The notes: generated by a model from the letters alone, not told the origin. Counted from the stretch's first letter, positions 4,372 through 38,306 are shown. The stretch: DNA of 38,306 bases from Bacteroidota bacterium (GCA_030017895.1 JASEGV010000006.1:31511-69816), one strand, 5' to 3'. Program-made: numbers and translations.

Positions 4372-4400
4372 AATATAATGTCTTCTTCAATAAGATGCAA
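4372..4400 (-). promoter_or_regulatory. Promoter candidate TTGCAT-N17-TATATT for the 2860-4224 gene
   Basis: On the minus strand, TTGCAT (4395-4400) and TATATT (4372-4377) are separated by exactly 17 bases. The same arrangement recurs at 6748-6776 and 9003-9031 upstream of two other minus-strand genes, and in the tRNA and ybaB promoters. The predicted start of transcription is near 4365, about 140 bases before the ATG. Confidence 0.6.
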
Positions 4401-4663
4401 GTGGTAATGAAAATTGGCGTAATTTTGCTAAAAATCCAGAAAATAAGTTTTTTTTTGTTTGTCCGATTGCAATCCGTCTTTGACGGACGACTTACTGCTG
4501 GAATGATCCTGATGTTTTAGTAAGTCGACGAAACTCGTCGACCTACACCAAACTCATCCCCTATCTCAGTTCGAACAAGAACCATCGCTTAAACATTGAT
4601 AAGGGGTTGAGTGACTTTAAAATTACGTATCGAGAGAACCGAAAAAAAGCTAAACCTCTCACC

Positions 4664-11675: not shown

Positions 11676-11716
11676 TTACTTTTCTTTCAACTGCTTTTTA
11701 ATTTCATATTAAAAAT

Positions 11717-13729
<2,013 letters not shown>

Positions 13730-21766: not shown

Positions 21767-24700
21767 ATGAAGTGTAATCTTAATATATTCCTATGTAAAT
21801 TGATTTTGTTATGCTTTTGCTTTCATCTAAACACACATGTTTATTCCGCCGAATCTTTAAAACCTTATAAAAACATTTCTGAATATTCCCACCGATCTTG
21901 GGATTCGAAAAACGGATTTTTACCTTATTCAATAAATATCATTCTTCAAACACGCGACGGTTATCTATGGATGGGAACCGATGATGGGTTAGTGCGGTTT
22001 GATGGAATGGAATTCTCAACTTATAATACGAGTAACACAAATGCTTTTAAAACAAATAATATATCATCTCTGGTGGAAGACAGAGACGGACGGTTGTGGA
22101 TTGGTTGTAGAGATGGCGGGCTGTTAAGTTATTATGAGGATTCTTTTAAATATTATTTTATTAAAGACAGCTTGAAAGATGATAGAATTCTCTCGATGTG
22201 TCTTGATCACGAAAACAATTTATGGATAGGGACACCCCGTAATCTTTCCTACATTTCATTAAGTGTCGGCGTAAAACAAACATCAGGCAGCAATCATATT
22301 TTTAATAAATTCTCTGAAATAGATTTTTCTACCTTTGATGTTTACTCAATTGTTTGTGATGACTTCGGGACAATTTGGGTCACTTGCAAAGCAAGTTCAT
22401 ATGTTTATAAAATAAGTCATGGGAAAAAGGAAAAATCTGTTCTGTTTAGTGGTAATTTTTGGAGTTCTCAGATTTATTGCTTTTTCTCAGACAGCAAGGG
22501 AAGAAACTGGATCGGAACGGTTCATGGATTAAAAATTTTGAGAAACGGTAATCTCTCTTCATATTCCGGCCAAAATGGACAGCTTGAATTCAGGATAAAT
22601 ACTATAATGGAGGACCAGATTGGAAATTTATGGATAGGAACTCATGGAAATGGGTTGTATAAGTTAGATACAGCAGGATATATAAAGAAATTTTATATTA
22701 AAGACGAAATATCTTTGGATAGAGTAGTGTCATTGTTTGAAGATACGGAAGGAGGGATTTGGATTGGCACACGAGGAGGCGGGCTGCATCGGCTGCAAAA
22801 AAAAATCTTAAAAACTTACACAACAATCGATGGGCTATCTGATAATCGGGTATGGTCAATTTGCGAATCCCGCAATAACGATATCTGGATCGGAACACAA
22901 AAAGGATTGAATAAACTTACCTTTAATAAATCCAGGGAAGTAATCACAAGATTACCAATTCCTGGAAATGAAAAAGCTATTATTGTGAGAACCATTATCG
23001 AAGATCATAATAATGTTATTTGGATAGGAGCCGGGAAAGATATTCTGAGATACTCCAACGGCAAACTTAAACGTTTCTTATCAGTAAATGAGCCGAGGTC
23101 AATGGTTGTAGATTCTAATAATAACTTATGGATTGGAGGGGGGGACGCCGGACTTATAAAAGTTCAAAACGAAAGCCATCAAATATTTTTCAACAGTCTG
23201 GAAAATCTAACATTTTTTAAAAAGAACTTTTCCGAGCCTATTGTTTATCAAATTAAAGCTCTTTGTTACGATGATAAAGGAAGCCTCTGGATAGGAACAA
23301 AGAATGGACTTTTTCGGTCTAGTGGAGATTCTCTTTATTTCTTCGACAAAGCCCCCGGGCTGACAGGTAATGCCGTGATGACGTTGTTAAATGATTCAAA
23401 GGGGACTCTCTGGATAACAGTTTATGGATTTGGTTTATTCCGTTTTAATACCGGTAACAATGAAAAACAATTTTCTCGGATAACCAGAGATGCTGGTTTA
23501 ATTGACAACACAATATATTCTATTCTTGAGGATGATTACGGAAAATTTTGGTTTGGCAGCAATAAGGGAATTTTTAGCATCAACCGCCAGGAAGTTGTTG
23601 ATTTCTGTGATGGCAAAATTTCATCTGTCCACGCTGTTGCATACGGATTAGAGGCTGGAATGGAAAGCATAGAATGTAACGGCGGCAATCATCCATCAGC
23701 AATAAAATCAAAGGATGGCCGTTTATGGTTTCCAACAATGGGGGGCGTTACCGTTGTTGATCCCGGTAACCTGAATTGGAAACAGGACTCACTGAAAGTA
23801 TATATTCAAAAAACAGTTGTTGACGGTGTAGAATTATCGACCAATCGGCTACATTCATTAGAGCCCGGTAATAAAAGAAAGATAGAATTTCGCTACACTG
23901 CCATTAATTTTTCAAACTCTGAGAATATCCGTTTTAAATACCGATTAGAAGGATATGATGATGAATGGATAGACGCCCAGAACCAGCGGATTATCTATTA
24001 TTTGAACATTCCACCCGGCCAATATAATTTTCGAGTTCTTGCCAGCAATCACACGGGAGCTTGGAATACCGAAGGGGCTTCAATTTCTTTTGTAATTCCT
24101 CAGCATTATTGGGAAACTGACACATTTAAAATTTTGGTTGGAATTCTAATTGTGGGTATCATAATCGGAATCACTCGCTTGTTTTTTGCCAGAAAATTAC
24201 AACATCAATTGTACATACTTGAAAACCAGCGTGCATTAGAGCAGGAGCGGCTAAGAATTTCCAGAGATATTCACGATGAAATCGGTTCGAGGTTGACAAA
24301 AATTTCAGTTCTCAATGAGGCAGTTAAAGATGAAATAGATAAAGCACCCTTGATACAAGAATTTACCGAAAAAATATCAAACGAAACCAAACTAATGATC
24401 GAAAATCTTGATGAAATCATCTGGTTCATCAATCCTGGTAACGACAGCATAGAACATCTCGGCACGTTTCTCAGGGAATATATAGCTGATTTCTTTAGCT
24501 CATTCGATATTGAATGCAATTGCGAATTCCCGGATTCGTATCCAGCCATTCAAATTTCTCCTGAAGTCCGAAGAAATACAGTTTTAATTGTGAAGGAAAT
24601 TACAAACAATGTTGTTAAACATGCTTCGGCAACAAAAGTTAATGCTAAATTTTATTTAAAGGAGCAAACTATATGGATATCCCTGAAAGATAATGGCAAA

Positions 24701-24850
24701 GGGTTTTGTACTCGGGAGCCTCACCCGCTCGGAAATGGTTTAATTAATATTCAAAAAAGAATTGAGGAAATTGGTGGTAAAATAATAATTGAGTCTGTTG
24801 TTTCGTCAGGGACAGCAATACAAATTTTTTTACCTTTAAAAAATACGTAA
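21767..24850 (+). CDS. Beta-propeller two-component sensor histidine kinase
   Basis: 1027 residues. A signal peptide (about 1-29) is followed by a periplasmic two-propeller sensor made of about 12 Reg_prop repeats of the (L/I)W(I/M)GT..GL form, at about residues 60-660. Next come a Y_Y_Y domain (FRYTAINFSNSENIRFKYRL ... PPGQYNFRVLASN, about 705-775) and one transmembrane helix near 789-808. The kinase is of the HisKA_3 type with the phospho-acceptor His836 in RISRDIHDEIGSRLT. The ATPase domain has KEITNNVVKHA (N box), KDNGKGF and GNGLINIQKRIEEIGG. No receiver or AraC domain is fused, unlike classical Bacteroidota hybrid regulators; the response regulator is the next gene, 2 bases on. The ligand is unknown; related sensors often detect glycans. 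Confidence 0.95.
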   Translation: MKCNLNIFLCKLILLCFCFHLNTHVYSAESLKPYKNISEYSHRSWDSKNGFLPYSINIILQTRDGYLWMGTDDGLVRFDGMEFSTYNTSNTNAFKTNNISSLVEDRDGRLWIGCRDGGLLSYYEDSFKYYFIKDSLKDDRILSMCLDHENNLWIGTPRNLSYISLSVGVKQTSGSNHIFNKFSEIDFSTFDVYSIVCDDFGTIWVTCKASSYVYKISHGKKEKSVLFSGNFWSSQIYCFFSDSKGRNWIGTVHGLKILRNGNLSSYSGQNGQLEFRINTIMEDQIGNLWIGTHGNGLYKLDTAGYIKKFYIKDEISLDRVVSLFEDTEGGIWIGTRGGGLHRLQKKILKTYTTIDGLSDNRVWSICESRNNDIWIGTQKGLNKLTFNKSREVITRLPIPGNEKAIIVRTIIEDHNNVIWIGAGKDILRYSNGKLKRFLSVNEPRSMVVDSNNNLWIGGGDAGLIKVQNESHQIFFNSLENLTFFKKNFSEPIVYQIKALCYDDKGSLWIGTKNGLFRSSGDSLYFFDKAPGLTGNAVMTLLNDSKGTLWITVYGFGLFRFNTGNNEKQFSRITRDAGLIDNTIYSILEDDYGKFWFGSNKGIFSINRQEVVDFCDGKISSVHAVAYGLEAGMESIECNGGNHPSAIKSKDGRLWFPTMGGVTVVDPGNLNWKQDSLKVYIQKTVVDGVELSTNRLHSLEPGNKRKIEFRYTAINFSNSENIRFKYRLEGYDDEWIDAQNQRIIYYLNIPPGQYNFRVLASNHTGAWNTEGASISFVIPQHYWETDTFKILVGILIVGIIIGITRLFFARKLQHQLYILENQRALEQERLRISRDIHDEIGSRLTKISVLNEAVKDEIDKAPLIQEFTEKISNETKLMIENLDEIIWFINPGNDSIEHLGTFLREYIADFFSSFDIECNCEFPDSYPAIQISPEVRRNTVLIVKEITNNVVKHASATKVNAKFYLKEQTIWISLKDNGKGFCTREPHPLGNGLINIQKRIEEIGGKIIIESVVSSGTAIQIFLPLKNT

Positions 24851-24852
24851 TT

Positions 24853-25554
24853 ATGAAAATCAAAGTAGCAATTGTTGATGATGGTGAAGAATATCGCAAC
24901 CATCTCGAAAAAATTTTTAAAAACCATCCGGATTTTCGATGTGTAGGAACATATCGAACAGCCGAAGACGCATTAATTGATATCCCACAAAAAATTCCGG
25001 ACGTTGCGTTAATGGATATTCATCTGCCTGGAATTGACGGAGTTGAATGTGTGAAAAGGTTGAAAGAAGCAATGCCACAAACCCAGTTCATGATGCTTAC
25101 AATCTTTGAGAACGACACCTATATATTTAATGCTTTGGTTGCTGGTGCAACTGGATATTTACTCAAGCGTTCTTCAAAAGAAGAAATTTTTACAGCGATT
25201 AAAGAGCTGTATAACGGAGGGGCTCCTATGTCTGCTCAAATCGCGCGCAAAGTGTTATCTTTCTTCAGCCAATTCAAAACAAAATTTTCTGAAACCGATG
25301 TTGATGAACAACTTTCGAAACGAGAAGAAGAAGTTCTCTCCTATCTTACAAAGGGTTATCAGTATAAAGAAATTGCCAAGGTACTATTTATTAGCTATGA
25401 AACCATCCGAACGCACATTAAACACATATACAAGAAACTTCATGTCAGGTCTAAGAGCGAAGCAATAATTAAGTCATTCGGCTACAAAAAAATATCAGCT
25501 TCATCTCAAAAAAAAGTAGTCTGTAAAAAATCCTCAAAATTGAAACAGAAATAA
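24853..25554 (+). CDS. NarL/FixJ-type response regulator (LuxR HTH)
   Basis: 233 residues. The receiver domain has acidic residues Asp9-Asp10 (VAIVDDGEE), phospho-acceptor Asp55 (ALMDIHLPG), Thr83 (MLTIFEND) and Lys105 (GYLLKRSS). The LuxR-type helix-turn-helix is at about 153-207 (LSKREEEVLSYLTKGYQYKE ... TIRTHIKHIYKKLHVRSKSE). A lysine-rich tail (SSQKKVVCKKSSKLKQK) is appended, which is unusual and may add DNA affinity. It is phosphorylated presumably by the adjacent HisKA_3 kinase, a standard NarL-type pairing. The next promoter, at 25602, could be one of its targets; this is inference. Confidence 0.95.
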   Translation: MKIKVAIVDDGEEYRNHLEKIFKNHPDFRCVGTYRTAEDALIDIPQKIPDVALMDIHLPGIDGVECVKRLKEAMPQTQFMMLTIFENDTYIFNALVAGATGYLLKRSSKEEIFTAIKELYNGGAPMSAQIARKVLSFFSQFKTKFSETDVDEQLSKREEEVLSYLTKGYQYKEIAKVLFISYETIRTHIKHIYKKLHVRSKSEAIIKSFGYKKISASSQKKVVCKKSSKLKQK

Positions 25555-25666: not shown

Positions 25667-27028
25667 ATGGCAGATATTCCAGAATTAAAAAAAGTTTTAT
25701 GGCGTAACGGAGATGTGGTCTCGGAGGAACACTTTTACGCACTTGAAGAATGGATTGAGCAGCTTGTTAGTATGGGCTATTCCCAAGCTGGAAGTTACGG
25801 ACTTATCAGGAATTCATATCTTCAAACCGACTACAATAACTCCGAGAATATTAATTTTAAGCGTTTAGACGGCGCAAATTACCAAGTCGAAATTTCTCAA
25901 TTTCAGGGATTAAACCCTTACGGAAGACTGATCAAAATTGATGGCAGCAGGACTTTTAATTTTCAATTCAGACCACCTCAAAAAAGTCCCGATGGAAAAT
26001 ATCTGCTGTATATAATGCCGTCAAGTTCAGGGCGAGATGGAATCATTGAGTCAGATTCAGAGCCGATAACGGGAGCGTCTGTTTATGACGCTTTGTACGA
26101 AATCTCAATTACAAACAATCAGGCCACGGGAGTTGTACTTTGTCGTTTTAAAATCGAGGATAACGAACTAATCGTAGATAAATCGTTTATTCCGTTTGGC
26201 GTTTTTATCGACAGCTCTCCGAACTGTGTTGATGCCAGCAACGGAATATTAACAAAGTTCACTCTTTGGAGTTCTTTGTTGGATAACTACCTGAAATCCT
26301 TAAAACCCACTCCCGAAATTGTACTCGTATGGAACGCTACTGGTCAATTCATTCGTTCGAATGGATTTTTTAAACCGCTAATTGAGAATACCCATACCCC
26401 GACATTAAACTATTTTAACGGCTTACAACAGTTTTTTAATCAAGTTAAAAGTGAATTACAAATTTTATCTGTCGGTTGGGAACAAGCCACGCTGAAACAA
26501 AGAATTAATGAAGTAGTCGAAAAACTTAATGAATCTATTATATCTCCGAATGAACCTCAGGTAGAATTAAACACAGCATTTTCTTACGCTGAAAAATTAT
26601 TCGACGATATAACTAAATTGCTTTCTTATTTTCCGGCTGGACCTATTGCTGAAAAAACACTTCCAATCTCAAGAGTCGAATTAATGAAGGAAGCCGCTGG
26701 AAATCGTTTGAACATATATCTTGAGACGGAAGCTCAGTTTGTAAAAAGTAAAACTCAAATAACATTTCAACTCAGGGAGTTTTCGAAATCAGACCCAGTC
26801 GGGAAGAATATCCGTGTAGGTATGGGCAGCGCAATTTTTGCTCAACTTTTAGATTTGAAAAACTTGTTGAAACGAGTTCCCGGAGAATCGTTCACATATA
26901 CAATCGAATGCCCTCCCGAAGTTGTAACCAAAGATAAAGCTTCACACCTTACTCTTTATCTCCCTCAACCACTCGGTGAAGGTGTCATCGATTTGAAATC
27001 GCATATAACTATAATTATAAGGGATTAG
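25667..27028 (+). CDS. TssK-like protein (type VI secretion baseplate family)
   Basis: 453 residues from the ATG at 25667, which has AGG 7 bases upstream; an in-frame TTG at 25661 is too close to that site. The N-terminus has the TssK signature pattern: KVLWRNGDVVSEEHFYALEE (W..G.....HF), then SYGLI and a beta-rich shell with GLNPYGRLIKIDG. A helical middle (about 240-320: LNYFNGLQQFFNQVKSELQI ... AFSYAEKLFDDITKLLSYF) and a beta-sandwich C-terminus (about 335-450) follow, the same three-part order as TssK. TssK connects the phage-like baseplate of type VI systems to the TssJLM membrane complex. The sequence most resembles the divergent Bacteroidota-type TssK. No other recognisable tss gene is in the window. 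It pairs with the GTPase gene 4 bases downstream. Confidence 0.6.
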   Translation: MADIPELKKVLWRNGDVVSEEHFYALEEWIEQLVSMGYSQAGSYGLIRNSYLQTDYNNSENINFKRLDGANYQVEISQFQGLNPYGRLIKIDGSRTFNFQFRPPQKSPDGKYLLYIMPSSSGRDGIIESDSEPITGASVYDALYEISITNNQATGVVLCRFKIEDNELIVDKSFIPFGVFIDSSPNCVDASNGILTKFTLWSSLLDNYLKSLKPTPEIVLVWNATGQFIRSNGFFKPLIENTHTPTLNYFNGLQQFFNQVKSELQILSVGWEQATLKQRINEVVEKLNESIISPNEPQVELNTAFSYAEKLFDDITKLLSYFPAGPIAEKTLPISRVELMKEAAGNRLNIYLETEAQFVKSKTQITFQLREFSKSDPVGKNIRVGMGSAIFAQLLDLKNLLKRVPGESFTYTIECPPEVVTKDKASHLTLYLPQPLGEGVIDLKSHITIIIRD

Positions 27029-27032
27029 AATA

Positions 27033-29201
27033 ATGTTGCAACCTGTCACTGAAATAGCACGTGATTTTAACAAACAGTGTCTTACTCTTGCCGACTTTTT
27101 AAGAGATGTCGATTCGGGTACGGATATAACTCAAAAACAAGATAAGATATCGAAGGCAGTGCACGGCTTTTTCGATGCTTTACAACAACTCCCAAATCAA
27201 ATAGCTCCGCTGGACACACGAGAGACTATACTCTTTGAGATAGACCGGGCTTTGGTAGGAAGTTATGGCTCAAAAGTTTTTTCCGCTTCTGAAAGTACAA
27301 ATCAAACAAGAAGACTTTTAAGAGATTTAACAGCTCTCTGGCAACACTATTATCTTATCGCTGGTTTAACACATACCGAAACCGGCGGTGGCGTTTCGGG
27401 GACGATGAGTTTTTATGAAGAATGGATTAAATCTGAAAATGTCGGGATAGAAGAATCGGAGTACGATAGAATGCTCGCAGATGTTTCTGCCCTGCTTCAG
27501 AGTTCAGAAAATCTAAATGTCCCTACAAAGATTCAGTTATTTTCATTAATGGGTAAAATTTTAATGACACTCGGCGTTTCGGAAGATTTTGCTCAGAGCA
27601 AATTACAGAGTCATTTCGATGAAATTAAACAGAGAACGAGCGACACGGCAAGTATTTCGTTTGCCGAAATATTACTCTGCTTACAAGTGTTAGGTTCGAA
27701 GGGCAAAGGTCTCGATTCAACCGGAACAAGTTCAATCGAAGTCCAAAAAGCAATTCGTTACTGGTGCAGCAAGGACGATTTCATCAACAGCCTCTTCAAA
27801 AATTGGGGTTGGTACTGGGAAAACGATTATGTAAGTCCGTTAGCAATGGGCGACCAAATTTATTTGAAGGAGAGAAGTCCATTATATATTTCACACGCAA
27901 ACAACACGATGAAGTTAGGTATCGGACATTCATACCTTGAATTAATAGAACATAAAAAACAAAACCCACTGCTTACTAGTCTTTTCCAACCAGTTCCCAT
28001 TTTCTTATTCGGACAATCAGGAGTTGGTAAGAGTAGTTATATATCGGCTTTTTGCTACGAAGCACAGATGCGAGCCGGTAAACCTGTTACACTCGGTAGA
28101 GAGTTGCAAGTATATTATGAGGGTGTCTCCGATGCTTGGCGCTCAAACAGCATACCGCCATCCAGCGGTTTAAACAGCTATAACTTCTGGGAAGATTTGA
28201 ACATAACAAGCTATACGACTTTTGATTACGGCGGTAAAGATACGCAGCCCGATCAATGGGAACACCAACTGCAGGATATTTTTAGAAAGGCAAAAGGTTT
28301 ATTTTTTTTCATCGATGAAAAAGATTATCTGGATCCGGTTAAATTGAGGAAAAGAGCTAACTGGTTTGATGCCATCCTACAGTATTGGGTTCAAAGTAAT
28401 CCGAATATCCGACACGTCCCCACCGGATTAATTTTGACAAAGGGTGATACAGTATTTGGTGAATCTTTGTCGCAACTTGGGAGGTCATCTTTAATCCCTT
28501 CTAACTTCCAACCAGTTCTAATCGAATCTCTTTTACCTCAGAGATTTCCGAAGATGACCGAAGAAATGAAAACTCCTTACGGAAGGTTAAGAGATTTCAT
28601 GCTTCGTGACAGGGCAAACAATGCTCATCCAGTCTTGCAAGATATCGTTCAAACGTTGCTCGATAATTTTTCACAATTCTTTAACCGCGTTTTAGATTTA
28701 ACTTTTCACTATCAAATATTCATCACGTCAGCTCAACCGCCGCGGGAGATTAACGACCCGTTATTTCCTTGGGGTGTAAAAGATTCCATGATGTGGATGT
28801 TGAATATAATCGAAAAATTCCATCTCCGCGAAAGTTTAATGAAATTCAGAAGTGAAGAGGGGCAGATCGAAAGCGAGATAAAGATTCTTCGTGAAGATAT
28901 AAATCAAATGCAGAAATACAGAGATGAGATTTCATCTGCAAATACTGAGATTACCCGCTTGCGACAGAAATCGACGATATTCCAGGCGGCGATGAAAGAC
29001 AGGATCAAATTCCACGAAGAAAACAGACAGCGTGCTGAGCAGGATTTTATGACGATCTTGAACAGATATATAAAAGATTCTCCCGAAGCAAATAAAGCTG
29101 CTGGAATTCAGACTGTTGAAAGAGAGATACGTAAAAAGGAAGAACTGCTTGCCGGCTTACGTGAAAAACGAAACGATTATGAGAGCAGGTTAAGGTTTTA
29201 G
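27033..29201 (+). CDS. Soluble P-loop GTPase with C-terminal coiled coil, partner of TssK-like protein
   Basis: 722 residues, no signal or transmembrane helix. The first ~300 residues are helical and not recognised. A GTPase-type P-loop domain follows: Walker A GQSGVGKS at 327-334, a Walker B/G3-like DYGGKD at 398-403, the segment GLFFFIDEKDYLDP, and a G4-like TKGD at 469-472 in GLILTKGD. The order P-loop, D..G, TK.D matches the TRAFAC GTPases and is also the order in the TssM/IcmF GTPase domain, although TssM is much longer and membrane-bound. The last ~100 residues are a charged coiled coil (about 620-718). It overlaps functionally with the TssK-like gene, 4 bases upstream; its stop is one base before the next GTG start. 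The true family is unknown. Confidence 0.6.
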   Translation: MLQPVTEIARDFNKQCLTLADFLRDVDSGTDITQKQDKISKAVHGFFDALQQLPNQIAPLDTRETILFEIDRALVGSYGSKVFSASESTNQTRRLLRDLTALWQHYYLIAGLTHTETGGGVSGTMSFYEEWIKSENVGIEESEYDRMLADVSALLQSSENLNVPTKIQLFSLMGKILMTLGVSEDFAQSKLQSHFDEIKQRTSDTASISFAEILLCLQVLGSKGKGLDSTGTSSIEVQKAIRYWCSKDDFINSLFKNWGWYWENDYVSPLAMGDQIYLKERSPLYISHANNTMKLGIGHSYLELIEHKKQNPLLTSLFQPVPIFLFGQSGVGKSSYISAFCYEAQMRAGKPVTLGRELQVYYEGVSDAWRSNSIPPSSGLNSYNFWEDLNITSYTTFDYGGKDTQPDQWEHQLQDIFRKAKGLFFFIDEKDYLDPVKLRKRANWFDAILQYWVQSNPNIRHVPTGLILTKGDTVFGESLSQLGRSSLIPSNFQPVLIESLLPQRFPKMTEEMKTPYGRLRDFMLRDRANNAHPVLQDIVQTLLDNFSQFFNRVLDLTFHYQIFITSAQPPREINDPLFPWGVKDSMMWMLNIIEKFHLRESLMKFRSEEGQIESEIKILREDINQMQKYRDEISSANTEITRLRQKSTIFQAAMKDRIKFHEENRQRAEQDFMTILNRYIKDSPEANKAAGIQTVEREIRKKEELLAGLREKRNDYESRLRF

Positions 29202-29202
29202 A

Positions 29203-30834
29203 GTGACAAAAAACAAATTGACTTTAATAATTATTTTATTAGTAATAACACTTGGAAAAATTAATGCACAAGTAACACTTGAATGGGTAGCCCGCTATAA
29301 CAGTCAGAGCAACGGCGGTGATCGTGCCATAGCGATGGCGATTGACTCGATTGGGAATGTTTATGTAACGGGGACTGATGCAGACTCTCCGCCGGGATTT
29401 GTAACGATAAAAGTAAACTCAAGCGGACGGATTCTGTGGGCGAGGAGATATTCAGGGGGACAAGCATTTATAGCAGTTCCCCAAGCAATTTCAGTAGACT
29501 TGAACGGGAATGTGTATGTTGGTGCTGAAGATGTTACATACATCATAGTGAGTTATGACAGCATTGGTAATGAGCGCTGGGTACGAAGACATTCGGGAAC
29601 TGGAGGAGGTTTCAGTGTATTACATGATGTTGAACTCTATCGCGACACCGGAAGTGTGATTACCACAGTCCAGGGGCTTGTTGCCACTGGATATTTAAAA
29701 AATATCGGTACAAATTGGGACGTTGGAACTTTAAAATATAACGCCAATGGAGATGTTGTATGGGTAAGAAATTATGATCCGAATAACTCTGAGGATGAGG
29801 GTGGAATTGCGATGGATAAAAATGACCAAACCAATATTACAATAACGGGATTTTCAGGATACCGAGACTTTCTCACATTAAGTTACGACATAAACGGTAA
29901 CCTGCGCTGGGCACAGACGTGGAATGGACCCGGCAACAATTGGGACCAAGCAAATGATGTTGCCGTCGATCAAAACGGAAATACGTATGTTACAGGAGCT
30001 GCGTATTTTGATACAATCAAACAAGATTTTTGCACGATGAGATATGATTACGACGGGAACTTGAAATGGGTAAGGAGTTTCAACCTAACACAATACAATA
30101 CAAGTTACGGGGAATTTATTAAAGTAGATCCATTTGGGAATGTTGTTGTTGCCGGAGGGGTGCAGGGAGATGCAAACTCACTTGATTACTGCACAATTAA
30201 GTATAATTCTCTTGGCAACCAATTATGGGTTCGGCTATATAATGGCGGACTCTATGATCGTGTTGAGGGATTAGCAGTTGACAGATATGGTTCTGTGTAT
30301 GTAACTGGTACAGCAAATGAGACTTATAATTTATATAAAATTTACACTATCAAATACGACAAAGACGGAAATCAATTATGGCTTGAGAAATATCCATATT
30401 ATGATACAATATCAAGTCCTGCAGCAATTATTGTTGATAATAACTTATATGTTTATATTACAGGGCAGATAGCTACACCCGAATATAGTAATGACATTAT
30501 CGTTCTAAAATATTCTCAGATAACAAGTGTAGAGCAAACGAAAGATGGAGTTCCCGAAGAATTTAAGTTATATCAAAATTATCCGAACCCGTTCAATCCG
30601 AAAACGGATATCAGATTTCGGATTCCAGATTTCGGATTTGTTATTTTGAAGATATACGATCTATTTGGAAGAGAAGTCGCTACCGTGGTTAATGAGAAGA
30701 AAGAACCGGGCGAACATCAAGTGGAATGGAACGCGGAAGGAATAGCAAGTGGTGTGTATTTTTATCGGATGACGGTGTACAATGGGATGTTGGGAACAAA
30801 GGCGGTTACGAGGAAAATGGTAGTCATCAATTAA
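29203..30834 (+). CDS. Secreted SBBP-repeat beta-propeller protein, T9SS cargo (copy A1)
   Basis: 543 residues. It starts with GTG at 29203, one base after the GTPase stop, so its translation is probably coupled to that gene. A signal peptide (LTLIIILLVITLGKINAQ) is followed by about eight SBBP-type blades of the GN(V/I)YVTG...(T/D)(F/Y)..(I/M)(K/R)YD..GN..W form. A T9SS type-A sorting domain closes it (NYPNPFNPKTDIRFRIPD ... GREVATVVNEKKEPGEHQVE ... GVYFYRM). This sorting domain is of a different subtype from those of the minus-strand cargo. It is clearly paralogous to the gene at 33524 (about 60% by eye). Function unknown; such propellers usually bind surface ligands or proteins. Confidence 0.88.
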   Translation: MTKNKLTLIIILLVITLGKINAQVTLEWVARYNSQSNGGDRAIAMAIDSIGNVYVTGTDADSPPGFVTIKVNSSGRILWARRYSGGQAFIAVPQAISVDLNGNVYVGAEDVTYIIVSYDSIGNERWVRRHSGTGGGFSVLHDVELYRDTGSVITTVQGLVATGYLKNIGTNWDVGTLKYNANGDVVWVRNYDPNNSEDEGGIAMDKNDQTNITITGFSGYRDFLTLSYDINGNLRWAQTWNGPGNNWDQANDVAVDQNGNTYVTGAAYFDTIKQDFCTMRYDYDGNLKWVRSFNLTQYNTSYGEFIKVDPFGNVVVAGGVQGDANSLDYCTIKYNSLGNQLWVRLYNGGLYDRVEGLAVDRYGSVYVTGTANETYNLYKIYTIKYDKDGNQLWLEKYPYYDTISSPAAIIVDNNLYVYITGQIATPEYSNDIIVLKYSQITSVEQTKDGVPEEFKLYQNYPNPFNPKTDIRFRIPDFGFVILKIYDLFGREVATVVNEKKEPGEHQVEWNAEGIASGVYFYRMTVYNGMLGTKAVTRKMVVIN

Positions 30835-30903
30835 AAATGTAAAATTCAAAATGAAAAAAGGAAAAACTTTCTTTCAAATAATTTTTATAATGAGAAATGA
30901 ATT

Positions 30904-33468
30904 ATGAGAAACTTCACAGTAGGTTTTATTGTGCTGCTTTTGACGACTGCGGCACAGTCGCAAACGTGGAATTATTTAAACTTCGAGTGCGGTGGGTATG
31001 TTACGGAAATCATCCCCGTCAAATATCCGAGCACAGTAGGGAAATCGATTGATAATCAGGTGTTATATGCTCGAACGGACATTGGCGGTGTATACCGCAG
31101 TAACAATAACGGTCTGTCGTGGACGTATGTTAGCACTTATCTAAATTATCCAACTGGCGGTGGGCATCCGGGTATTTCAGGCTCAGAACTGAGCATCCAG
31201 GGCATTGCAGTACGGTACGATTCGATAACAGGAAAAGAAATCGTCAATGTTGCCTGGGGAAATTATGAAGATGATGCTAAATCAGAATATCGATCCATCT
31301 GGCGTTCTGATAATAGCGGTGCTGAAGGTTCATGGACGAAGCCAACAATCATCGGACAAGTCTGGTTTCGAGGGAATAATTTCCCTGTGAAACTTGGCGG
31401 ACCGTGTATTACTTATGACCCGAATAATATTAGAAGAGAATTTTCACATATGTACATGGGCGGATTTGGACCAACGGTTGCAAACATACCTGGGAAAGCG
31501 TATTTATATAAAAGTGAAAACGATGGGCAGAGTTGGGATTTGGTTCAATCATTTAGAGATTTTCAAAACGTTAATGGTTATGCCGGAGAAGGCATCACTT
31601 GCATCAATATTTCAAAAAAAATTAACCCTAGTGATACTGCTCATATCTGGGTAGGCACTACACATGGGATTGTTTTTACTACAAACGGAGGAACAAACTG
31701 GCAAAGAGTTACAATACCTGGAGTTCCAACACCTTATGTTAAAAGAATTTTACTTAAAAAAGAAGGAAGTATTATAACCGGAGCGATGGTTACGTGGGGG
31801 AAAAATGATGACACTACAGGTGTCGGGAGACTCTTGGCGAGCGGCGGTTGGCAATATATAGATATTACTTCAAACTTTTTAACCGGTTATACAGGAGGAA
31901 GTGGTAGCGGATTGTTTTCGTCATTAACATTCGTTGACACAAATGAAACAATAATAATTTCTGGTAAGTATGAAAGACCCTTACGTAAGACAGGAGACTT
32001 TGGTAATAGCTGGTATGGCGAGGTGAATAATTCACCAAATAACGAAGTTGTATTCAGATACACACAAAGCGGAAACAATTTTCCGGCACATCAGCAAAAA
32101 GGCGAGCTGGATCCGAGCTGGGGTTTTATGTATGATGGATTAAGCTGTATAACAAAAAATCCGAATAGCGGTTGGGGCAACCAGTGGTATTTAAGCGGCG
32201 GTGCAGGTGCGAGGATGACCGTGAGTAGTGCCGGTGCAGATACTAACTTTGTAAATTCGCGTTGGAAATATACAACACTTGGACAGGCGATGACGGTGAA
32301 CTATGATGTTGTATTCTCTAAAGTAAACAACCGCGAAGCTATATATCTACCGTTGTCAGACTGGACGATGGGTAGTACTTATCAGGATAGATTAAGTACT
32401 CCAACGACTGGTGGTTTTATACAAGATACATTATCATACGACAGACAGGAGACACGCCCTCTTCATTTATATGATACATATATATCGAATGTAACCCGGA
32501 TACTAATACATCCTGATAATCCTAATATCAGTTATTGTGTAGGTGGCAGTGTTTATGATTTTAACCCGACAGAAAGTTACAGAGCGGGATTTTACGTAAG
32601 AACTGATAGCAACGGAATAATTAAAACGAGTCGCAAAGAAACACATCCGTTTTTACAAAAAAATGACCGAGCAATAGTAGATGCAATAATTAATAATAAG
32701 CCAGTAGGCGGAAACAGGATAATAGTTTTGGCAGGGAGAAACCGGAAAGCAGTGCAGCCTGGAGATAGTTTAGGAATATTTTATTCCGATGACGGAGGGG
32801 TCAACTGGGGTCCACGGGGAACGTTCAATCAACAAAGCGGAAACCAAACTATGTCAACACAGCAAGCATATCAAAGGTCAATTATCCCAGGCTTAATCGA
32901 TGGTGCGATAGGAGATATTTTTGATGGGCACTTCCATTTGGTGTATTTGGGAAATGGCCGGGTGGGGTTGTGGTTAGAAGCCGGCGGAATGTTTATATCC
33001 ACTGATAATGGTGAGAATTGGGGATCAAAGTCTCCGCCATCACAATTAACAAACAAATATTTGCGTGCAGGTTCTTTGAAATATGTAGGAAATGATACAA
33101 TTGCATTAGCGGTTCGCAAGGGCGATGCCGATCCTGGAGGCTTGTACAAAGGTATCATCGATTCCATTGGTAATATTATATGGCTTAATGGTGGCTCTAG
33201 TATTAGCAATTTCACCAGTGCCGAACACCTCGATATTAATTTAGACAGATGGGTAGTATATGGAAAAAAGGATAATGATTTGTATAATCAAATCTATTTT
33301 TCGATTAGTGGCGGTAACTGGCAAAGGATTGCACCTCCTGCCCAACAGCACTTGCCCAGAGTCAAAAGTTTGAGAATCAGACCAGATAAAAATGAAATTT
33401 GGGTTGCATCGAGCGGGCAAGGTGTGTGGAGATACACCTATGAAAGTAGTAACTATACAAAAAAGTAG
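30904..33468 (+). CDS. Secreted BNR/GH74-like beta-propeller protein (copy B1)
   Basis: 854 residues. A signal peptide (MRNFTVGFIVLLLTTAAQSQ) leads into WNYLNFECGGYVTEI, then the GH74-like motif LYARTDIGGVYRSNNNGLSW. Asp-box (BNR) repeats recur: YKSENDGQSW, FTTNGGTNW, FYSDDGGVNW, FISTDNGENW. These form two seven-bladed propellers as in GH74 endoglucanases/xyloglucanases and sortilin-like folds. A PLSDWTM motif near residue 480 is kept in the paralog and could be the second acidic site of GH74. The end, GQGVWRYTYESSNYTKK, has no T9SS sorting domain, whereas the paralog continues with extra domains. Export by signal peptide to the periplasm, or loss of the tail, are both possible. Enzyme activity is not proven. 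Confidence 0.75.
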   Translation: MRNFTVGFIVLLLTTAAQSQTWNYLNFECGGYVTEIIPVKYPSTVGKSIDNQVLYARTDIGGVYRSNNNGLSWTYVSTYLNYPTGGGHPGISGSELSIQGIAVRYDSITGKEIVNVAWGNYEDDAKSEYRSIWRSDNSGAEGSWTKPTIIGQVWFRGNNFPVKLGGPCITYDPNNIRREFSHMYMGGFGPTVANIPGKAYLYKSENDGQSWDLVQSFRDFQNVNGYAGEGITCINISKKINPSDTAHIWVGTTHGIVFTTNGGTNWQRVTIPGVPTPYVKRILLKKEGSIITGAMVTWGKNDDTTGVGRLLASGGWQYIDITSNFLTGYTGGSGSGLFSSLTFVDTNETIIISGKYERPLRKTGDFGNSWYGEVNNSPNNEVVFRYTQSGNNFPAHQQKGELDPSWGFMYDGLSCITKNPNSGWGNQWYLSGGAGARMTVSSAGADTNFVNSRWKYTTLGQAMTVNYDVVFSKVNNREAIYLPLSDWTMGSTYQDRLSTPTTGGFIQDTLSYDRQETRPLHLYDTYISNVTRILIHPDNPNISYCVGGSVYDFNPTESYRAGFYVRTDSNGIIKTSRKETHPFLQKNDRAIVDAIINNKPVGGNRIIVLAGRNRKAVQPGDSLGIFYSDDGGVNWGPRGTFNQQSGNQTMSTQQAYQRSIIPGLIDGAIGDIFDGHFHLVYLGNGRVGLWLEAGGMFISTDNGENWGSKSPPSQLTNKYLRAGSLKYVGNDTIALAVRKGDADPGGLYKGIIDSIGNIIWLNGGSSISNFTSAEHLDINLDRWVVYGKKDNDLYNQIYFSISGGNWQRIAPPAQQHLPRVKSLRIRPDKNEIWVASSGQGVWRYTYESSNYTKK

Positions 33469-33523
33469 ATTTTACAATAGGTAAGTATTTTTGTATAATA
33501 TGATAATAGATAAAAGGAAGAAG

Positions 33524-35131
33524 ATGAAAGCAGGAAAAATATTATTACTATTGCTCATGTTAATATCGTTAGTTGATGAGATGAATTCCCAAGTTCAACT
33601 CGAGTGGGTAGCACGTTATAATGGACCGAGTAATTTTTCGGAGTATGTAAGTGCGATGACAATTGACTCGATGGGGAATATTTATGTAACAGGAGAAGAC
33701 AACGAGCAACCATACGGATTTGTGACTGTAAAGTTCAACTCAAGTGGGCAGTTTGTTTGGGCAAGGAGATACTCAGGTGGGTTGGCAATAAAAGCAACAC
33801 CGAAATCAATCGCAGTTGACTTGCAAGGCAATGTGTATGTTGGTGCAAGCGATGTGGATTACATCGTAGTAAAATATGATGTGGATGGAGTAGAACAGTG
33901 GGTGAAAAAGTATAGAGGAAGTGGAACGGGAATGAACGAAATAGTAGATTTGGTTATCGATTACACCGAAAATGTTAACGTATTAGTTACTGGTTCTTCA
34001 GACAATATCATTTCAACGAGGGATATTGGAACTTTAAAATACAGCACAAATGGTGATACATTATGGACAAGAAATTTCAGCAGATTAAATAACACACTTG
34101 AGTGGGCTACTGCAATGGATATTGATAATTTTAATGCACTGAGTATAGCTGGTGATACAAAACTTAGCATGCAGTCTAAAGATTTTCTCACCTTAAGCTA
34201 CGATTATTATGGTAATCTACGCTGGGCACAGACATTTGATGGACCTGCAAGTCGTTGGGATGAAGCATCTGATATTGCATCTGATAAAAATGGTAATGTG
34301 TATGTAACAGGATATGCGACAATGGACAGCTTAAATGCTATAAACATTGCTACTATCAAGTATAACAGCAGTGGTAATGAACAATGGGTTAGATTTTATG
34401 AAGGTACCTTCCCATATTACTATTCGGAAGGCAGATTTATCAAGATTGATCCATATTATAATATTGTCACTGCGGGTTGGCAAGCTGGTTATAATTATGA
34501 TTTTTGTACAATTAAATACGATTCACTTGGTAATCAATTATGGGTAAAAGGATACAACGGCGCAGCAAATGCAGAAGATTTTCTTGAAGGTTTAGCAGTT
34601 GATAAATATGGAGATATATATGTAACCGGCAGCGCTAAAGATGAAATAAATCGTCCCAAAATAACAACAATCAAATACGACAAGGGCGGAAATCAGGTAT
34701 GGCTTCAGAAATATCCCGACAGCGATAGCATTTCATACCCTAAAGGAATAATTGTGGATAAAGATTTAAATGTTTATGTTGCAGGTATATCATTTAATCC
34801 GAGTGATATTATTGTGTTAAAATATTCACAGCCGACGAGTGTAGTGCCTATATTGAGCGAAGTTCCTGATGGATTTCAGTTGTATCAGAATTATCCAAAT
34901 CCTTTTAATTCAAAAACAAATATCAAATATCAAATTACAAATTCATCGTTTTTGAGAATTAAAGTATATGATGTATTTGGAAGGGAAGTAGCGACATTGG
35001 TAAATGAGAAGAAAGAACCTGGTGAATATCAGGTTGAATGGGACGCTGAAGGACTTGCTAGTGGCCTGTATTATTATCGAATTATTTCCGGAAGATATAT
35101 CGAAACCAAGAAAGCGCTATTAATAAAATAA
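33524..35131 (+). CDS. Secreted SBBP-repeat beta-propeller protein, T9SS cargo (copy A2)
   Basis: 535 residues from the ATG at 33524, chosen because AAAGGAAG lies 5 bases upstream; an in-frame ATG at 33491 would put basic residues before the signal peptide (MKAGKILLLLLMLISLVDEMNSQ). The body is a close paralog of the 29203 gene, with the same order of SBBP blades (LEWVARYNGPSN, GNIYVTGED, RYSGG, GNVYVGASDVDYIVVKYDV). The sorting domain reads NYPNPFNSKTNIKYQI ... GREVATLVNEKKEPGEYQVE ... SGLYYYRI and ends KKALLIK. It forms, with the gene downstream, a second copy of the propeller pair. Function unknown. Confidence 0.88.
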   Translation: MKAGKILLLLLMLISLVDEMNSQVQLEWVARYNGPSNFSEYVSAMTIDSMGNIYVTGEDNEQPYGFVTVKFNSSGQFVWARRYSGGLAIKATPKSIAVDLQGNVYVGASDVDYIVVKYDVDGVEQWVKKYRGSGTGMNEIVDLVIDYTENVNVLVTGSSDNIISTRDIGTLKYSTNGDTLWTRNFSRLNNTLEWATAMDIDNFNALSIAGDTKLSMQSKDFLTLSYDYYGNLRWAQTFDGPASRWDEASDIASDKNGNVYVTGYATMDSLNAINIATIKYNSSGNEQWVRFYEGTFPYYYSEGRFIKIDPYYNIVTAGWQAGYNYDFCTIKYDSLGNQLWVKGYNGAANAEDFLEGLAVDKYGDIYVTGSAKDEINRPKITTIKYDKGGNQVWLQKYPDSDSISYPKGIIVDKDLNVYVAGISFNPSDIIVLKYSQPTSVVPILSEVPDGFQLYQNYPNPFNSKTNIKYQITNSSFLRIKVYDVFGREVATLVNEKKEPGEYQVEWDAEGLASGLYYYRIISGRYIETKKALLIK

Positions 35132-35147
35132 AAGAAAGGGTTATAAA

Positions 35148-38100
35148 ATGAAATATTTAACATTGTTTTTAATAGTGTTGGTAATATCGAAATCAACATA
35201 TTCCCAATCTGGTGCGTGGAATTATTTAAATTTTGAATGCGGAGGATATGTGACGGAAATAATTCCGGTAAAGTATCCGGCGGGACAGCAGCCTGGAAAC
35301 ATCAATCAACAAGTGCTTTATGCAAGAACCGACATTGGCGGGATTTATCGTAGCGAAGATAATGGTCAGAGCTGGAAATTTGGGAGTAATTATGTTAATC
35401 CTGTAGCCCCACCTGGTAATCCTGGAATATCGATATCAGAACTGAGCATACAAGGTCTTGCAGTTAGATACGATGCACAAACTGGGAAAGAAATTGTTAA
35501 TGTTGCCTGGGGAAATTATGAAAATGATGCAGAAGCTGCAGATTTCAAATCCATCTGGCGATCAAGTCGTAATGGGGAAATTGATGCCTGGACTAAATCA
35601 ACGATCACTCCTCAGAGTGTATGGTTCAAAGGTAATAAAATGGGTGTAAAGATAGGTGGACCGTGTATTATCTACGATCCGAATAATATTAATGATCAAT
35701 ATTCACATTTATACATGGGCGGATTTGAACCGAATAATGGTAAAGCATATTTGTATAAAAGTGAAAACGATGGGGTGAATTTTTCAAGGATATTAAGTTT
35801 TGAGTCATTTCAAAACAGCACAAGTAGTCCAAATGGAGAAGGCATCACTTGCATTGCAATCAAGCCAGGAAATACGAGTCATATTTGGGTAGGTACAACA
35901 CACGGTATAGTGTTTACAACAAACGGTGGCGATTCTTGGAATAGGGTTTCAGTCCCTGGTGTCGAGGAACCGTTTGTTAAAAGAATTATATTAAGGAAAG
36001 TAAGCGTTGATATAACTGGAGCAATGTTTACATGGGGAAATAATTCAGACATTACGGGGATAGGACGGGTGGTTAAAGATGGCACTTTCTGGCGATATGA
36101 TGATTTAAGTGAAATATTTTTAAACGGTTTATTGGGTGACGACAGAGGAAACAGTATGTTTGCTCCATTATCGTTTGTTGATAATTCAGAAGGTATAATT
36201 GTCGGTGGTAAATATCAAAGACCTCTTCGTAAAACTTCAGACTTTGGTGACAATTGGGTTGGCGAGGGAACCACACCAAATAAAGTGCGACTATATTATG
36301 ATGATCCCGCATTCAATAAAATTCCTAAACACTCTAACGATTATCAAAATCATCCGGAATATCCAGGTGTTGTCCATGATCAAATTTATTCGGGTATGAA
36401 TTCTTTGGTTAAAAATCCAAATACTGGTTGGGGAACTCACTGGTATATGAGCGGTGGGGCTGGCGCAAGGATAACCTCGGTTGATGTATCCAATGATAGA
36501 TTGTCAACCGCAAAATGGAAGTATTCCTTTACCCGTCAGTCAATGCCTGTTGTTTATGATGTGGTCTTTAAAAACGCCAATATTAATGGCATTAATAGGC
36601 AAACAATATTTATACCGATGTCTGATTGGACACTAGCTTGGCAATATTTAGACAATCTTAGTTTTACTACTTCTGATGACTTTGTAAGCAACGCGCTCGA
36701 ATATGATAGACAAAAAACATATGATTCTGACCTACAAGACACATACATTTCTAATGTGGTAAGGATGCTAAATGATCCAGACAATCCTAACAAAAGTTAC
36801 TGCCTCGGAGGCAGTGTATATGGATTTACGGCTGAGTATCGAAGGGCAGGATTTTACGTAAGGACTGAAAACAATGGTGCAGTTACAATAGCACGGAAAG
36901 AAACCCATCAGATTTTAACTGACAATGATAGAGCGGTTGTAGACGCAATTATTTTTAAAAAACCTGATAATGTAAATAGAATAATAGCTTTGGTAGGTGG
37001 AAACACAACTTCTTATCTGCCAGGTGGTTCAATAGGAGTGTTTTATTCGGATGATGGTGGGCAAAGTTGGTCGGAGGGAATGTTTAATATTCAAAGCACT
37101 GTTCTAGGAAAACAGACATCTACTGCTTATAGCCGATCATTGATTGCTGGGTTAAAGTCTGGTATAGACGGTTCGATAGGCGATATTTTTAACGGACATT
37201 TTTCACTCTCATACGCAGAAAGTTCGTTAGTCTACTTGTGGCTGCAATCCGCCAGTGGAAGACCGTATGGAGGCGGATTGTTCATCTCGACTGATAATGG
37301 GTCTAACTGGCGTGCGGGTGAGGATATCGAAAGTGGAGATATATATTGGGGTGCTGGTTCTTTGAAGTATATTGGAAATGACAAATTAGTTTTAGCATTT
37401 CGGGATGCTAGGTCAAATCCCAAAGGAGTGTATATTGGAGCAATTGATAGAAATAATAGTGGGAGTGTCAGTTGGACATATTTCGTTGATGCAAATAATG
37501 TTTGCTTCACCAGTGCCGATCATTTTGATGTACAGAATGAATTGTGGGCGGTGTATGGTAAAAGAATGGGTGATGCTTATGATCAAATCTACCGGTCAAC
37601 AAATAACGGTTTGATATGGACGAAGATACCTTACAGCATTACACAGAACTTTCCAAAGGTACACAGTCTGAGAATAAGACCGAACAGCGGAGAGCTTTGG
37701 GTAGCAACAGGCGGTCAGGGTGTGTGGGTTTATAAATTATTTGATCCGGGGTGGATAAGTATAACAACAGGTGTAAAAGATAAATGGAATATGGCAAGTG
37801 TTCCCATTATAATTAGTGATTACAAAAAAACAACTGTCTGGCAAGATGCAAATTCAGATGCTTTGACATGGGAAGGCGGTCCGCAATATGTATCAAAAGA
37901 TATTCTAGAAAATCGAATTGGTTACTGGATAAAATTTCCACAAAGCCAAACTGTAAACTATGTAGGTGTTCCAAGAGATTCTTTTCGCATCGGTGTAAAA
38001 GCCGGTTGGAATATGATAGGTTCTATATATCAGGATGTTCCAATTGCCAGAGTTGTTCAAAAACCAACTGGTATAACAACATCGCCTTACTATGGTTATG

Positions 38101-38306
38101 ATAATGGTTATTTTGTAACAGATGCAATACAATCTGGTAAGGCATATTGGATTAAAGTAAATCAGGATGGTGAAATAATATTAGATAAAAATTCTACTTC
38201 AGTGAGTCCACCACAATGTTCAGGCGAACAACCATCTAATCCGCCGGGTGCGCCTCCAATTCCAAAACTTGTTAAACCGGATAGCGGTGCCACAGGAATA
38301 TCAATA
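35148..38306 (+). CDS. Secreted BNR/GH74-like beta-propeller protein with C-terminal extension (copy B2, cut by window)
   Basis: 1053 codons are readable from the ATG at 35148 to the right edge without a stop. A signal peptide (MKYLTLFLIVLVISKSTYSQ) precedes WNYLNFECGGYVTEIIPVKY and LYARTDIGGIYRSEDNGQSW, so it is a paralog of the 30904 gene along its full length (Asp boxes YKSENDGVNF, FTTNGGDSW, FYSDDGGQSW, FISTDNGSNW; PMSDWTL). After GQGVWVYKLFD it continues where copy B1 stops: a duplicated WNM module (KWNMASVPII ... GYWIKFPQ and GWNMIGSIYQ ... AYWIKVNQ), a proline-rich linker, and the start of an Ig/Fn3-like repeat (LVKPDSGATGISI). A T9SS sorting domain is expected beyond the edge. A glycan-active role is suggested by the GH74 look only. 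Confidence 0.82.
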   Translation, partial: MKYLTLFLIVLVISKSTYSQSGAWNYLNFECGGYVTEIIPVKYPAGQQPGNINQQVLYARTDIGGIYRSEDNGQSWKFGSNYVNPVAPPGNPGISISELSIQGLAVRYDAQTGKEIVNVAWGNYENDAEAADFKSIWRSSRNGEIDAWTKSTITPQSVWFKGNKMGVKIGGPCIIYDPNNINDQYSHLYMGGFEPNNGKAYLYKSENDGVNFSRILSFESFQNSTSSPNGEGITCIAIKPGNTSHIWVGTTHGIVFTTNGGDSWNRVSVPGVEEPFVKRIILRKVSVDITGAMFTWGNNSDITGIGRVVKDGTFWRYDDLSEIFLNGLLGDDRGNSMFAPLSFVDNSEGIIVGGKYQRPLRKTSDFGDNWVGEGTTPNKVRLYYDDPAFNKIPKHSNDYQNHPEYPGVVHDQIYSGMNSLVKNPNTGWGTHWYMSGGAGARITSVDVSNDRLSTAKWKYSFTRQSMPVVYDVVFKNANINGINRQTIFIPMSDWTLAWQYLDNLSFTTSDDFVSNALEYDRQKTYDSDLQDTYISNVVRMLNDPDNPNKSYCLGGSVYGFTAEYRRAGFYVRTENNGAVTIARKETHQILTDNDRAVVDAIIFKKPDNVNRIIALVGGNTTSYLPGGSIGVFYSDDGGQSWSEGMFNIQSTVLGKQTSTAYSRSLIAGLKSGIDGSIGDIFNGHFSLSYAESSLVYLWLQSASGRPYGGGLFISTDNGSNWRAGEDIESGDIYWGAGSLKYIGNDKLVLAFRDARSNPKGVYIGAIDRNNSGSVSWTYFVDANNVCFTSADHFDVQNELWAVYGKRMGDAYDQIYRSTNNGLIWTKIPYSITQNFPKVHSLRIRPNSGELWVATGGQGVWVYKLFDPGWISITTGVKDKWNMASVPIIISDYKKTTVWQDANSDALTWEGGPQYVSKDILENRIGYWIKFPQSQTVNYVGVPRDSFRIGVKAGWNMIGSIYQDVPIARVVQKPTGITTSPYYGYDNGYFVTDAIQSGKAYWIKVNQDGEIILDKNSTSVSPPQCSGEQPSNPPGAPPIPKLVKPDSGATGISI

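What the first reader, a model, noticed from the sequence alone, without database searches (positions are those of the whole stretch)
25667..29201. Orphan TssK-like protein coupled to a soluble coiled-coil GTPase
The first protein shows the N-terminal W..G.....HF signature and domain order of TssK, the type VI secretion baseplate adaptor. Its only close partner is a 722-residue soluble protein with a GTPase P-loop (GQSGVGKS), DYGG and TKGD motifs and a long coiled coil, but without the membrane helices or length of TssM. No sheath, tube, ClpV, TssJ or TssL is present in the window. Either type VI components lie elsewhere in the genome, or TssK has been recruited into a new GTP-driven machine. 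The tight spacing (4 bases) argues for a complex.
Basis: partly seen in the sequence, partly recalled or inferred. Interest (0 to 1): 0.78.

Follow-up and report, generated by a model that had tools for sequence, protein, structure and literature searches.

The report
T6SS baseplate adaptor with soluble GTPase
Two neighbouring genes encode a genuine type VI secretion baseplate adaptor (TssK) and a soluble GTPase that always accompanies it; they belong to a complete but scattered molecular syringe in this genome, and the GTPase appears to stand where other type VI systems use a membrane protein to dock the syringe.

Summary
The first protein is a true TssK: 12 of the 13 significant PDB fold matches are TssK, and profile comparison agrees. 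The second is a soluble 722-residue protein with a Ras/Rag/Arf-like G domain, a helical N-terminus and a coiled coil, without membrane helices. 'Orphan' is wrong. The window ends at a contig end. The same genome carries ClpV, TssB, two Hcp-like proteins, TssC, VgrG pieces, TssE, TssF, TssG and PAAR on other contigs. In the sister genome G001 all are contiguous behind the pair. In a 391-genome survey of the class, TssC (above cut-off) occurs in six genomes, all with the GTPase; the seventh GTPase genome is cut at a contig end. The GTPase evolves as slowly as TssC and ClpV (dN/dS 0.025). Its G domain resembles the cytoplasmic NTPase domain of TssM, but the membrane and periplasmic parts are absent, and TssL and TssN were not detected. 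The sheath is T6SSiii-like; TssK and TssG resemble T6SSi. Best reading: an undescribed T6SS variant of Ignavibacteria in which a soluble TssM-like GTPase is the baseplate docking hub. The T6SS membership is shown; the docking role is inferred.

The parts
25667..27028 (+). TssK homologue, 453 aa: beta shoulder (1-180), helical neck (185-321), beta head (329-453)
   Evidence: Foldseek/PDB top 12 hits all TssK, best E 4.4e-11; VIA Z 14.6 to 5m30_C; TIGR03353 matches all 6 orthologues, best E 2.2e-9; HHalign vs T6SSi TssK 94.7%, E 6e-8
27033..29201 (+). Soluble GTPase with a TssM-NTPase-like G domain, 722 aa: helical N-terminal domain, G domain about 318-600, C-terminal coiled-coil hairpin 587-721
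   Evidence: dN/dS 0.025 vs G001
28011..28034 (+). G1/P-loop GQSGVGKS of the GTPase (residues 327-334)
   Evidence: sequence; G327, G332 and K333 invariant in 7 sequences
28224..28235 (+). G3 motif DYGG (residues 398-401)
   Evidence: D398 and G401 invariant
28437..28448 (+). G4 motif TKGD (residues 469-472), inside VP..LILTKGDTVFG, which resembles TssM VPVYVLxTKxDLLxGF
   Evidence: T469, K470, D472 invariant; alignment to TssM
28725..28733 (+). Probable G5 motif TSA (residues 565-567), after beta strand 560-564; aligns with Y-F-T-S of TssM in a low-confidence part of the alignment
   Evidence: inference from position in the G domain
28791..29195 (+). C-terminal helical/coiled-coil hairpin of the GTPase (residues 587-721)
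   Evidence: AlphaFold2 model secondary structure and pLDDT
29203..38306 (+). Secreted-protein genes (29203-30834 and 33491-35131 with T9SS sorting tails; 30904-33468 and 35148-end BNR/sortilin-like) lying where clpV follows directly in G001; runs to the contig end

Best explanation
The pair is the tssK and docking-hub module of a complete but scattered type VI secretion system (T6SS) of an undescribed lineage found in Ignavibacteria. SHOWN: protein 1 is a TssK homologue. Protein 2 is a membrane-helix-free GTPase with a Ras-like G domain. Sheath, tube, ClpV, TssE/F/G and PAAR genes are encoded in the same genome, and they are contiguous with the pair in the sister genome. The GTPase and this T6SS co-occur across the class. 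The sheath (TssC) forms its own clade next to T6SSiii. INFERRED: TssK trimers on the TssF/TssG baseplate wedges bind the GTPase. The GTPase works like the cytoplasmic half of TssM: its nucleotide state would gate recruitment of the baseplate and Hcp tube, while its coiled coil reaches a separate membrane anchor. The best candidate anchor is the pseudokinase-TM-periplasmic protein encoded at the far end of the operon, sometimes with an OmpA-like partner. Sheath contraction then proceeds as in other T6SSs, with ClpV recycling the sheath.
For: TssK fold and sequence. G001 gene order: tssK-GTPase-clpV-tssB-(hcp region)-tssC-vgrG-tssE-tssF-tssG-PAAR-...-kinase/TM/PEGA; both hcp-like ORFs are read in G000. 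The same genes are found in G000 on C112, C59 and C96. Co-occurrence: GTPase in 7 true genomes and TssC over cut-off in 6 of 391, all 6 being GTPase genomes; the seventh, G032, is cut at a contig end. GTPase dN/dS 0.025, like TssC 0.021 and ClpV 0.027. G domain vs a 12-sequence TssM NTPase profile: HHalign 95.6%, E 1.2e-8, 0 of 200 block shuffles as high; nine unrelated T6SS profiles give at most 0.7%. Among the G001 cluster proteins tested, helices are predicted only in the kinase-PEGA protein and a 528-aa protein; the kinase-PEGA protein's TM region is shared by G000, G569 and G549. In T6SSi and T6SSiii the gene next to tssK encodes the docking partner, TssL/TssM or TssN (PMC10781749).
Against: No interaction or GTPase activity was tested. 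The TssM resemblance depends on two motifs: masking both removes it, and masking the P-loop alone leaves a score that 1 of 200 shuffles reaches. PF14331 (TssM N-terminal domain) gave no match over its cut-off in seven genomes. The control GTPases were single E. coli sequences, not profiles, and RsgA matched at 82.8%, over its P-loop only. Coiled coil and helices are low-information features. The anchor protein is only a candidate; T6SSi clusters also carry kinases. The genome is a draft of 176 contigs, and about 410 bases of its vgrG were not found.
Confidence: 0.6

Rival explanations
1. The GTPase is not a structural docking hub but a regulatory switch of this T6SS, like a Rag/Arf or MglA-type GTPase that sets where or when the baseplate assembles; TssK adjacency reflects regulation.
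For: Best fold matches of the G domain are Rag/Arf-type switches (Z 13.1 to a RagA-like protein) and Pfam's weak hits include Gtr1_RagA and SRPRB. There is no membrane segment.
Against: It evolves as slowly as the sheath and ClpV, occurs in every TssC genome of the class, and is adjacent to tssK in every genome where both can be read; accessory regulators usually vary more.
Confidence: 0.25
2. In this particular genome the T6SS is decaying: secreted-protein genes have been inserted into the operon and split it, so the pair is a relic.
For: Insertions behind the GTPase, between tssC and vgrG, and between vgrG and tssE relative to G001; vgrG 5' end followed by unrelated sequence on C96 and a partial GTPase copy fused to hsdM on C19.
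Against: All core ORFs read here except vgrG are intact, and dN/dS against G001 is 0.02-0.13. T9SS-type genes also sit inside the operon of G080 and G569, so they are compatible with persistence.
Confidence: 0.12
3. The membrane complex is an ordinary T6SSiii TssNQOPR set, too diverged for the profiles; the GTPase is only an extra.
For: The sheath is T6SSiii-like (TssC PF17541 E 3e-28; HHalign 99.8%), and several own components escape the standard profiles (PF05936 misses this TssK).
Against: tssN lies between tssK and tssG in T6SSiii (PMC10781749); here the tssK neighbour is the GTPase, which shows no TssN similarity. PF17555 found no TssN over cut-off in seven genomes.
Confidence: 0.1
4. TssK and the GTPase form a new machine independent of any contractile tail.
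For: No sheath, tube or ClpV gene lies in the window itself.
Against: The tail genes are in the same genome and co-occur with the pair across the class.
Confidence: 0.03

Closest known systems
T6SSiii of Bacteroidota (TssNQOPR membrane complex)
   Same: The TssC sheath belongs to PF17541 and groups with T6SSiii rather than T6SSi; no TssJLM detected; genes often split over several loci (PMC10781749).
   Different: Separate TssC clade on a long branch (99/99); no TssN detected; a soluble GTPase rather than TssN is encoded beside tssK; TssG matches T6SSi TssG better than T6SSiii TssG.
T6SSi TssK
   Same: Three-domain fold, N-terminal signature, profile-profile match over the N-terminal region.
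   Different: Far below the curated cut-off of TIGR03353 (19.9 vs 100 bits) and missed by PF05936; followed by a soluble GTPase instead of TssL/TssM.
TssM/IcmF (cytoplasmic NTPase domain)
   Same: Collinear P-loop, VPxxxxTKxDxxxG and probably the last beta strand; encoded with tssK; large helical protein.
   Different: 722 aa, no membrane helices, no periplasmic domain; N-terminal helical domain and C-terminal coiled coil instead.
Rag/Arf/Ras-like TRAFAC GTPases
   Same: G-domain fold (VIA Z 13.1 to 8yl2_A) and G1, G3, G4 motifs.
   Different: A long helical segment between G4 and the last strand, plus large flanking helical domains.

Membership tests
Type VI secretion system | Contractile sheath TssB/TssC encoded in the same genome | tested here: met
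   C112: tssB and tssC; TssC PF17541 E 4.8e-29
Type VI secretion system | Hcp tube, VgrG spike, PAAR tip | tested here: met
   Two Hcp-like ORFs (the first has only a weak Pfam Hcp match, E 0.05), VgrG pieces and PAAR; the middle of vgrG was not found in this draft
Type VI secretion system | Baseplate TssE/F/G/K and ClpV | tested here: met
   TssK fold, TssG PF06996 E 3.7e-9 and ClpV-type AAA+; TssE and TssF named by position and size only, as HHalign gave no support
Type VI secretion system | Trans-envelope membrane complex | tested here: inconclusive
   TssM-N, TssL/DotU and TssN not found over cut-off; candidate TM proteins at the operon end
TssK | Shoulder-neck-head architecture and TssK fold | tested here: met
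TssK | Sequence relationship to T6SSi TssK | tested here: met
   TIGR03353 in all 6 orthologues, HHalign 94.7%, E 6e-8
TssK | Score above the curated cut-off of TIGR03353 (a detection threshold, not a structural property) | tested here: not met
   19.9 vs 100 bits
TssM (IcmF) | Cytoplasmic NTPase domain of TssM type | tested here: inconclusive
   HHalign 95.6%, E 1.2e-8, but carried by two motifs; PF14331 not over cut-off
TssM (IcmF) | Transmembrane helices and periplasmic domain | tested here: not met
   no hydropathy peak, 722 aa, no IcmF Pfam match listed
T6SSiii | TssC of the Bacteroidota type | tested here: met
   PF17541; tree places it beside T6SSiii as its own clade
T6SSiii | tssN beside tssK; TssNQOPR complex | tested here: inconclusive
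   The tssK neighbour is the GTPase; PF17555 not over cut-off; TssO/P/Q/R not searched genome-wide
TRAFAC GTPase | G1, G3, G4 motifs on a Ras-like fold | tested here: met
TRAFAC GTPase | Binds and hydrolyses GTP | not testable with these tools
   needs protein

The most novel reading that the evidence does not exclude
A separate T6SS lineage in Ignavibacteria whose baseplate docks, through TssK, on a soluble TssM-like GTPase ring tethered to a pseudokinase-TM-PEGA anchor: a third solution to baseplate docking besides TssJLM and TssNQOPR, combining a T6SSiii-type sheath with T6SSi-like baseplate parts.
Probability: 0.45. Interest if true: 0.78.

Novelty: new variant of a known kind. Interest (0 to 1): 0.62.

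Why it matters
How a contractile tail is docked to the envelope is what separates T6SSs from phages and extracellular injection systems. Two unrelated membrane complexes are known (TssJLM and TssNQOPR), and the origin of the second is called hard to identify in PMC10781749. A T6SS with a T6SSiii-type sheath but a soluble TssM-like GTPase beside TssK would be an intermediate, would suggest the NTPase part of TssM can function without a membrane part, and would make the debated role of TssM nucleotide motifs testable in a simpler protein. The full-text searches made here found no paper describing a T6SS in Ignavibacteria or a soluble GTPase paired with TssK; that library lacks most subscription papers.

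Tried and rejected
Single-sequence searches of plasmid and phage records and a viral-contig scan gave no relative of the GTPase; the two phylum-wide samples gave only G080 besides the own genome. PF05936, PF05943 and PF05591 miss this system entirely, so absence by those profiles means nothing here; PF17541 does find it. A first TssM comparison with 5 sequences was weak and was replaced by 12 sequences with controls. G452 (GTPase search) and G367 (TssC search) are coiled-coil false positives. Similarity of the GTPase to TssN, TssL, TssF or the T6SSi kinases was rejected. PDB fold searches of the GTPase model listed only Ras-like G domains among the top rows; the absence of a TssM entry there says nothing. 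PDB sequence profile search with the GTPase gave only G-alpha matches at E 3e-4 or worse in the rows shown. The idea that the pair is a separate machine was dropped.

Full report
What is in the window. The window is G000:C6:31511-69816 of a 3.2 Mb draft of 176 contigs, and its right end is the end of contig C6. The other main window genes are the origin region (gyrA, gyrB, DciA, recF, dnaN, dnaA), ftsX, a two-component pair just upstream of the finding, and secreted proteins, several with T9SS sorting tails. Named contigs behind two relatives call themselves Bacteroidota and one Ignavibacteria; the class name used here is inferred from these.

Protein 1 is TssK. Pfam misses it and NCBIfam TIGR03353 hits weakly (E 3.2e-4), but all six orthologues match TIGR03353, the best at 2.2e-9. 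An AlphaFold2 model from six orthologues (pLDDT 76.8) has a beta shoulder, a helical bundle and a beta head. Foldseek's 12 best PDB matches are all TssK (best E 4.4e-11). VIA-align gives Z 14.6 to 5m30_C, against 12.0 for the best unrelated bundle, and Z 10.8 to Francisella IglD. HHalign against four T6SSi TssKs gives 94.7%, E 6e-8.

Protein 2 is a soluble GTPase. G1, G3 and G4 residues are invariant in seven sequences. The model (pLDDT 75.3) shows an all-helical N-terminal part, a Ras-like alpha/beta domain with a long helical segment before its last strand, and a C-terminal helical hairpin. The G domain aligns with RagA-like and Arf-like GTPases (Z 13.1). Hydropathy shows no membrane segment in this protein or in two relatives. 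Against 12 TssM NTPase domains, HHalign gives 95.6% and E 1.2e-8, with P-loop and VPxxxxTKxDxxxG collinear and the last strand aligned at low confidence; 0 of 200 block shuffles score as high. Single E. coli Era and HflX score far lower, and RsgA matches over its P-loop only. The signal rests on the two motifs: masking both abolishes it. I therefore say it resembles the TssM cytoplasmic domain but do not file it as TssM.

It is not an orphan. In same-genus genome G001 the pair is followed 13 bases later by a ClpV-type ATPase, then TssB, the Hcp-like region, TssC, VgrG, TssE, TssF, TssG, PAAR and, further on, a kinase-TM-PEGA protein. A DNA search with that stretch found the genes in the window's own genome: clpV-tssB-hcp-hcp-tssC on C112, the vgrG 3' part to PAAR on C59, and the vgrG 5' end on C96, with the kinase-TM-PEGA protein further along C59. 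Names of TssE and TssF rest on position and size; TssC, TssG, VgrG and PAAR have profile support. In two class-wide draws of 391 genomes, the GTPase profile found G000, G001, G032, G601, G080, G549 and G569 (plus false positive G452), and TssC over cut-off was found in the same set minus G032, whose contig ends just after the GTPase gene. dN/dS against G001 is 0.025 for the GTPase, 0.098 for TssK, 0.021 for TssC and 0.027 for ClpV: a constrained core component.

What kind of T6SS. TssC belongs to PF17541 and matches T6SSiii TssC (HHalign 99.8%, E 9.5e-28) but not T6SSi TssC; in a tree of 15 sequences the six Ignavibacteria rows form one supported clade (99/99) beside T6SSiii, with a warning about long branches. 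TssK and TssG instead match T6SSi well; the T6SSiii TssK comparison used only two partial sequences and is not informative. TssN, TssM N-terminal domain and TssL found nothing over cut-off in the seven genomes, but these profiles may be too insensitive here. In T6SSi and T6SSiii the gene beside tssK encodes the membrane docking partner, and TssN binds TssK in vitro (PMC10781749). TssM's cytoplasmic part carries GTPase-like nucleotide motifs that in Agrobacterium recruit Hcp (PMC9972734). By the same gene-order logic, the soluble GTPase is the most likely docking partner here. A membrane anchor would have to be separate; the best candidate is the kinase-TM-PEGA protein, whose kinase domain lacks the usual HRD/DFG motifs by eye in G001 and G569 and is missing in G549, while the TM region persists. 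OmpA-like proteins lie nearby in G569 and G549.

Why it looked orphaned. Relative to G001, G000 carries secreted-protein genes exactly at gene boundaries of the operon: directly behind the GTPase stop codon, around the tssC/vgrG boundary, and between vgrG and tssE. G080 has such genes at two of the same boundaries, and G569 has some between clpV and tssB. A diverged second copy of [GTPase 3' end + secreted gene] on C19 has the same junction, which argues against an assembly error at the window's junction. Draft assembly breaks add to the scattering.

Verdict. What remains is a new T6SS variant with a soluble GTPase in the docking position. T6SS membership is well supported (about 0.95 by my estimate); the docking-hub mechanism is inference (about 0.6).

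Noticed in passing
window 29203-38306; L026 30-1451; L028 3077-4387; L027 8284-12481; L011 5947-10080; L015 3559-7446; L042 17794 to L043 909: Secreted-protein genes, many with T9SS sorting tails, are lodged at gene boundaries inside T6SS operons of three genomes, at two shared boundaries in G000 and G080, and are absent from same-genus G001. No transposase or target-site duplication was seen at the two junctions read.
   Followed up: partly
L008 (G000:C19) 9417-11728: A truncated hsdM is joined to the last 417 bases of a second GTPase gene (93% identical, 24 of 29 differences at third codon positions) followed by a paralogue of the window's 29203 gene: recombination or a chimeric assembly from a related lineage.
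   Followed up: partly
L028 (G000:C96) 4390-4514: The first ~126 bases of vgrG follow a T9SS-tail gene and then switch abruptly to another T9SS-tail gene; the next ~410 bases of vgrG were not found in the draft.
   Followed up: partly
L012 2510-5131 (G080:C84): The tssK end of the G080 T6SS lies next to genes that look like a replication initiator, ParA and ParB (by eye, not profile-tested), suggesting a plasmid or plasmid-derived island; this could explain the patchy distribution.
   Followed up: no
window 21767-25554: A hybrid sensor kinase with a beta-propeller sensor and a LuxR-type response regulator lie directly upstream of tssK here and in G001, but not in the G032, G569 or G549 stretches read: possible T6SS regulator.
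   Followed up: no
L044 3258-5450 (G549): The GTPase reading frame of G549 has one in-frame TAA near its N-terminus, so it is either truncated or starts downstream.
   Followed up: no
L013 4553-6871; L027 1335-3653: A conserved 772-aa protein downstream of the PAAR and LysM genes contains an HEVGHHLFLPHSKHH zinc-protease-like motif: possible T6SS effector.
   Followed up: no
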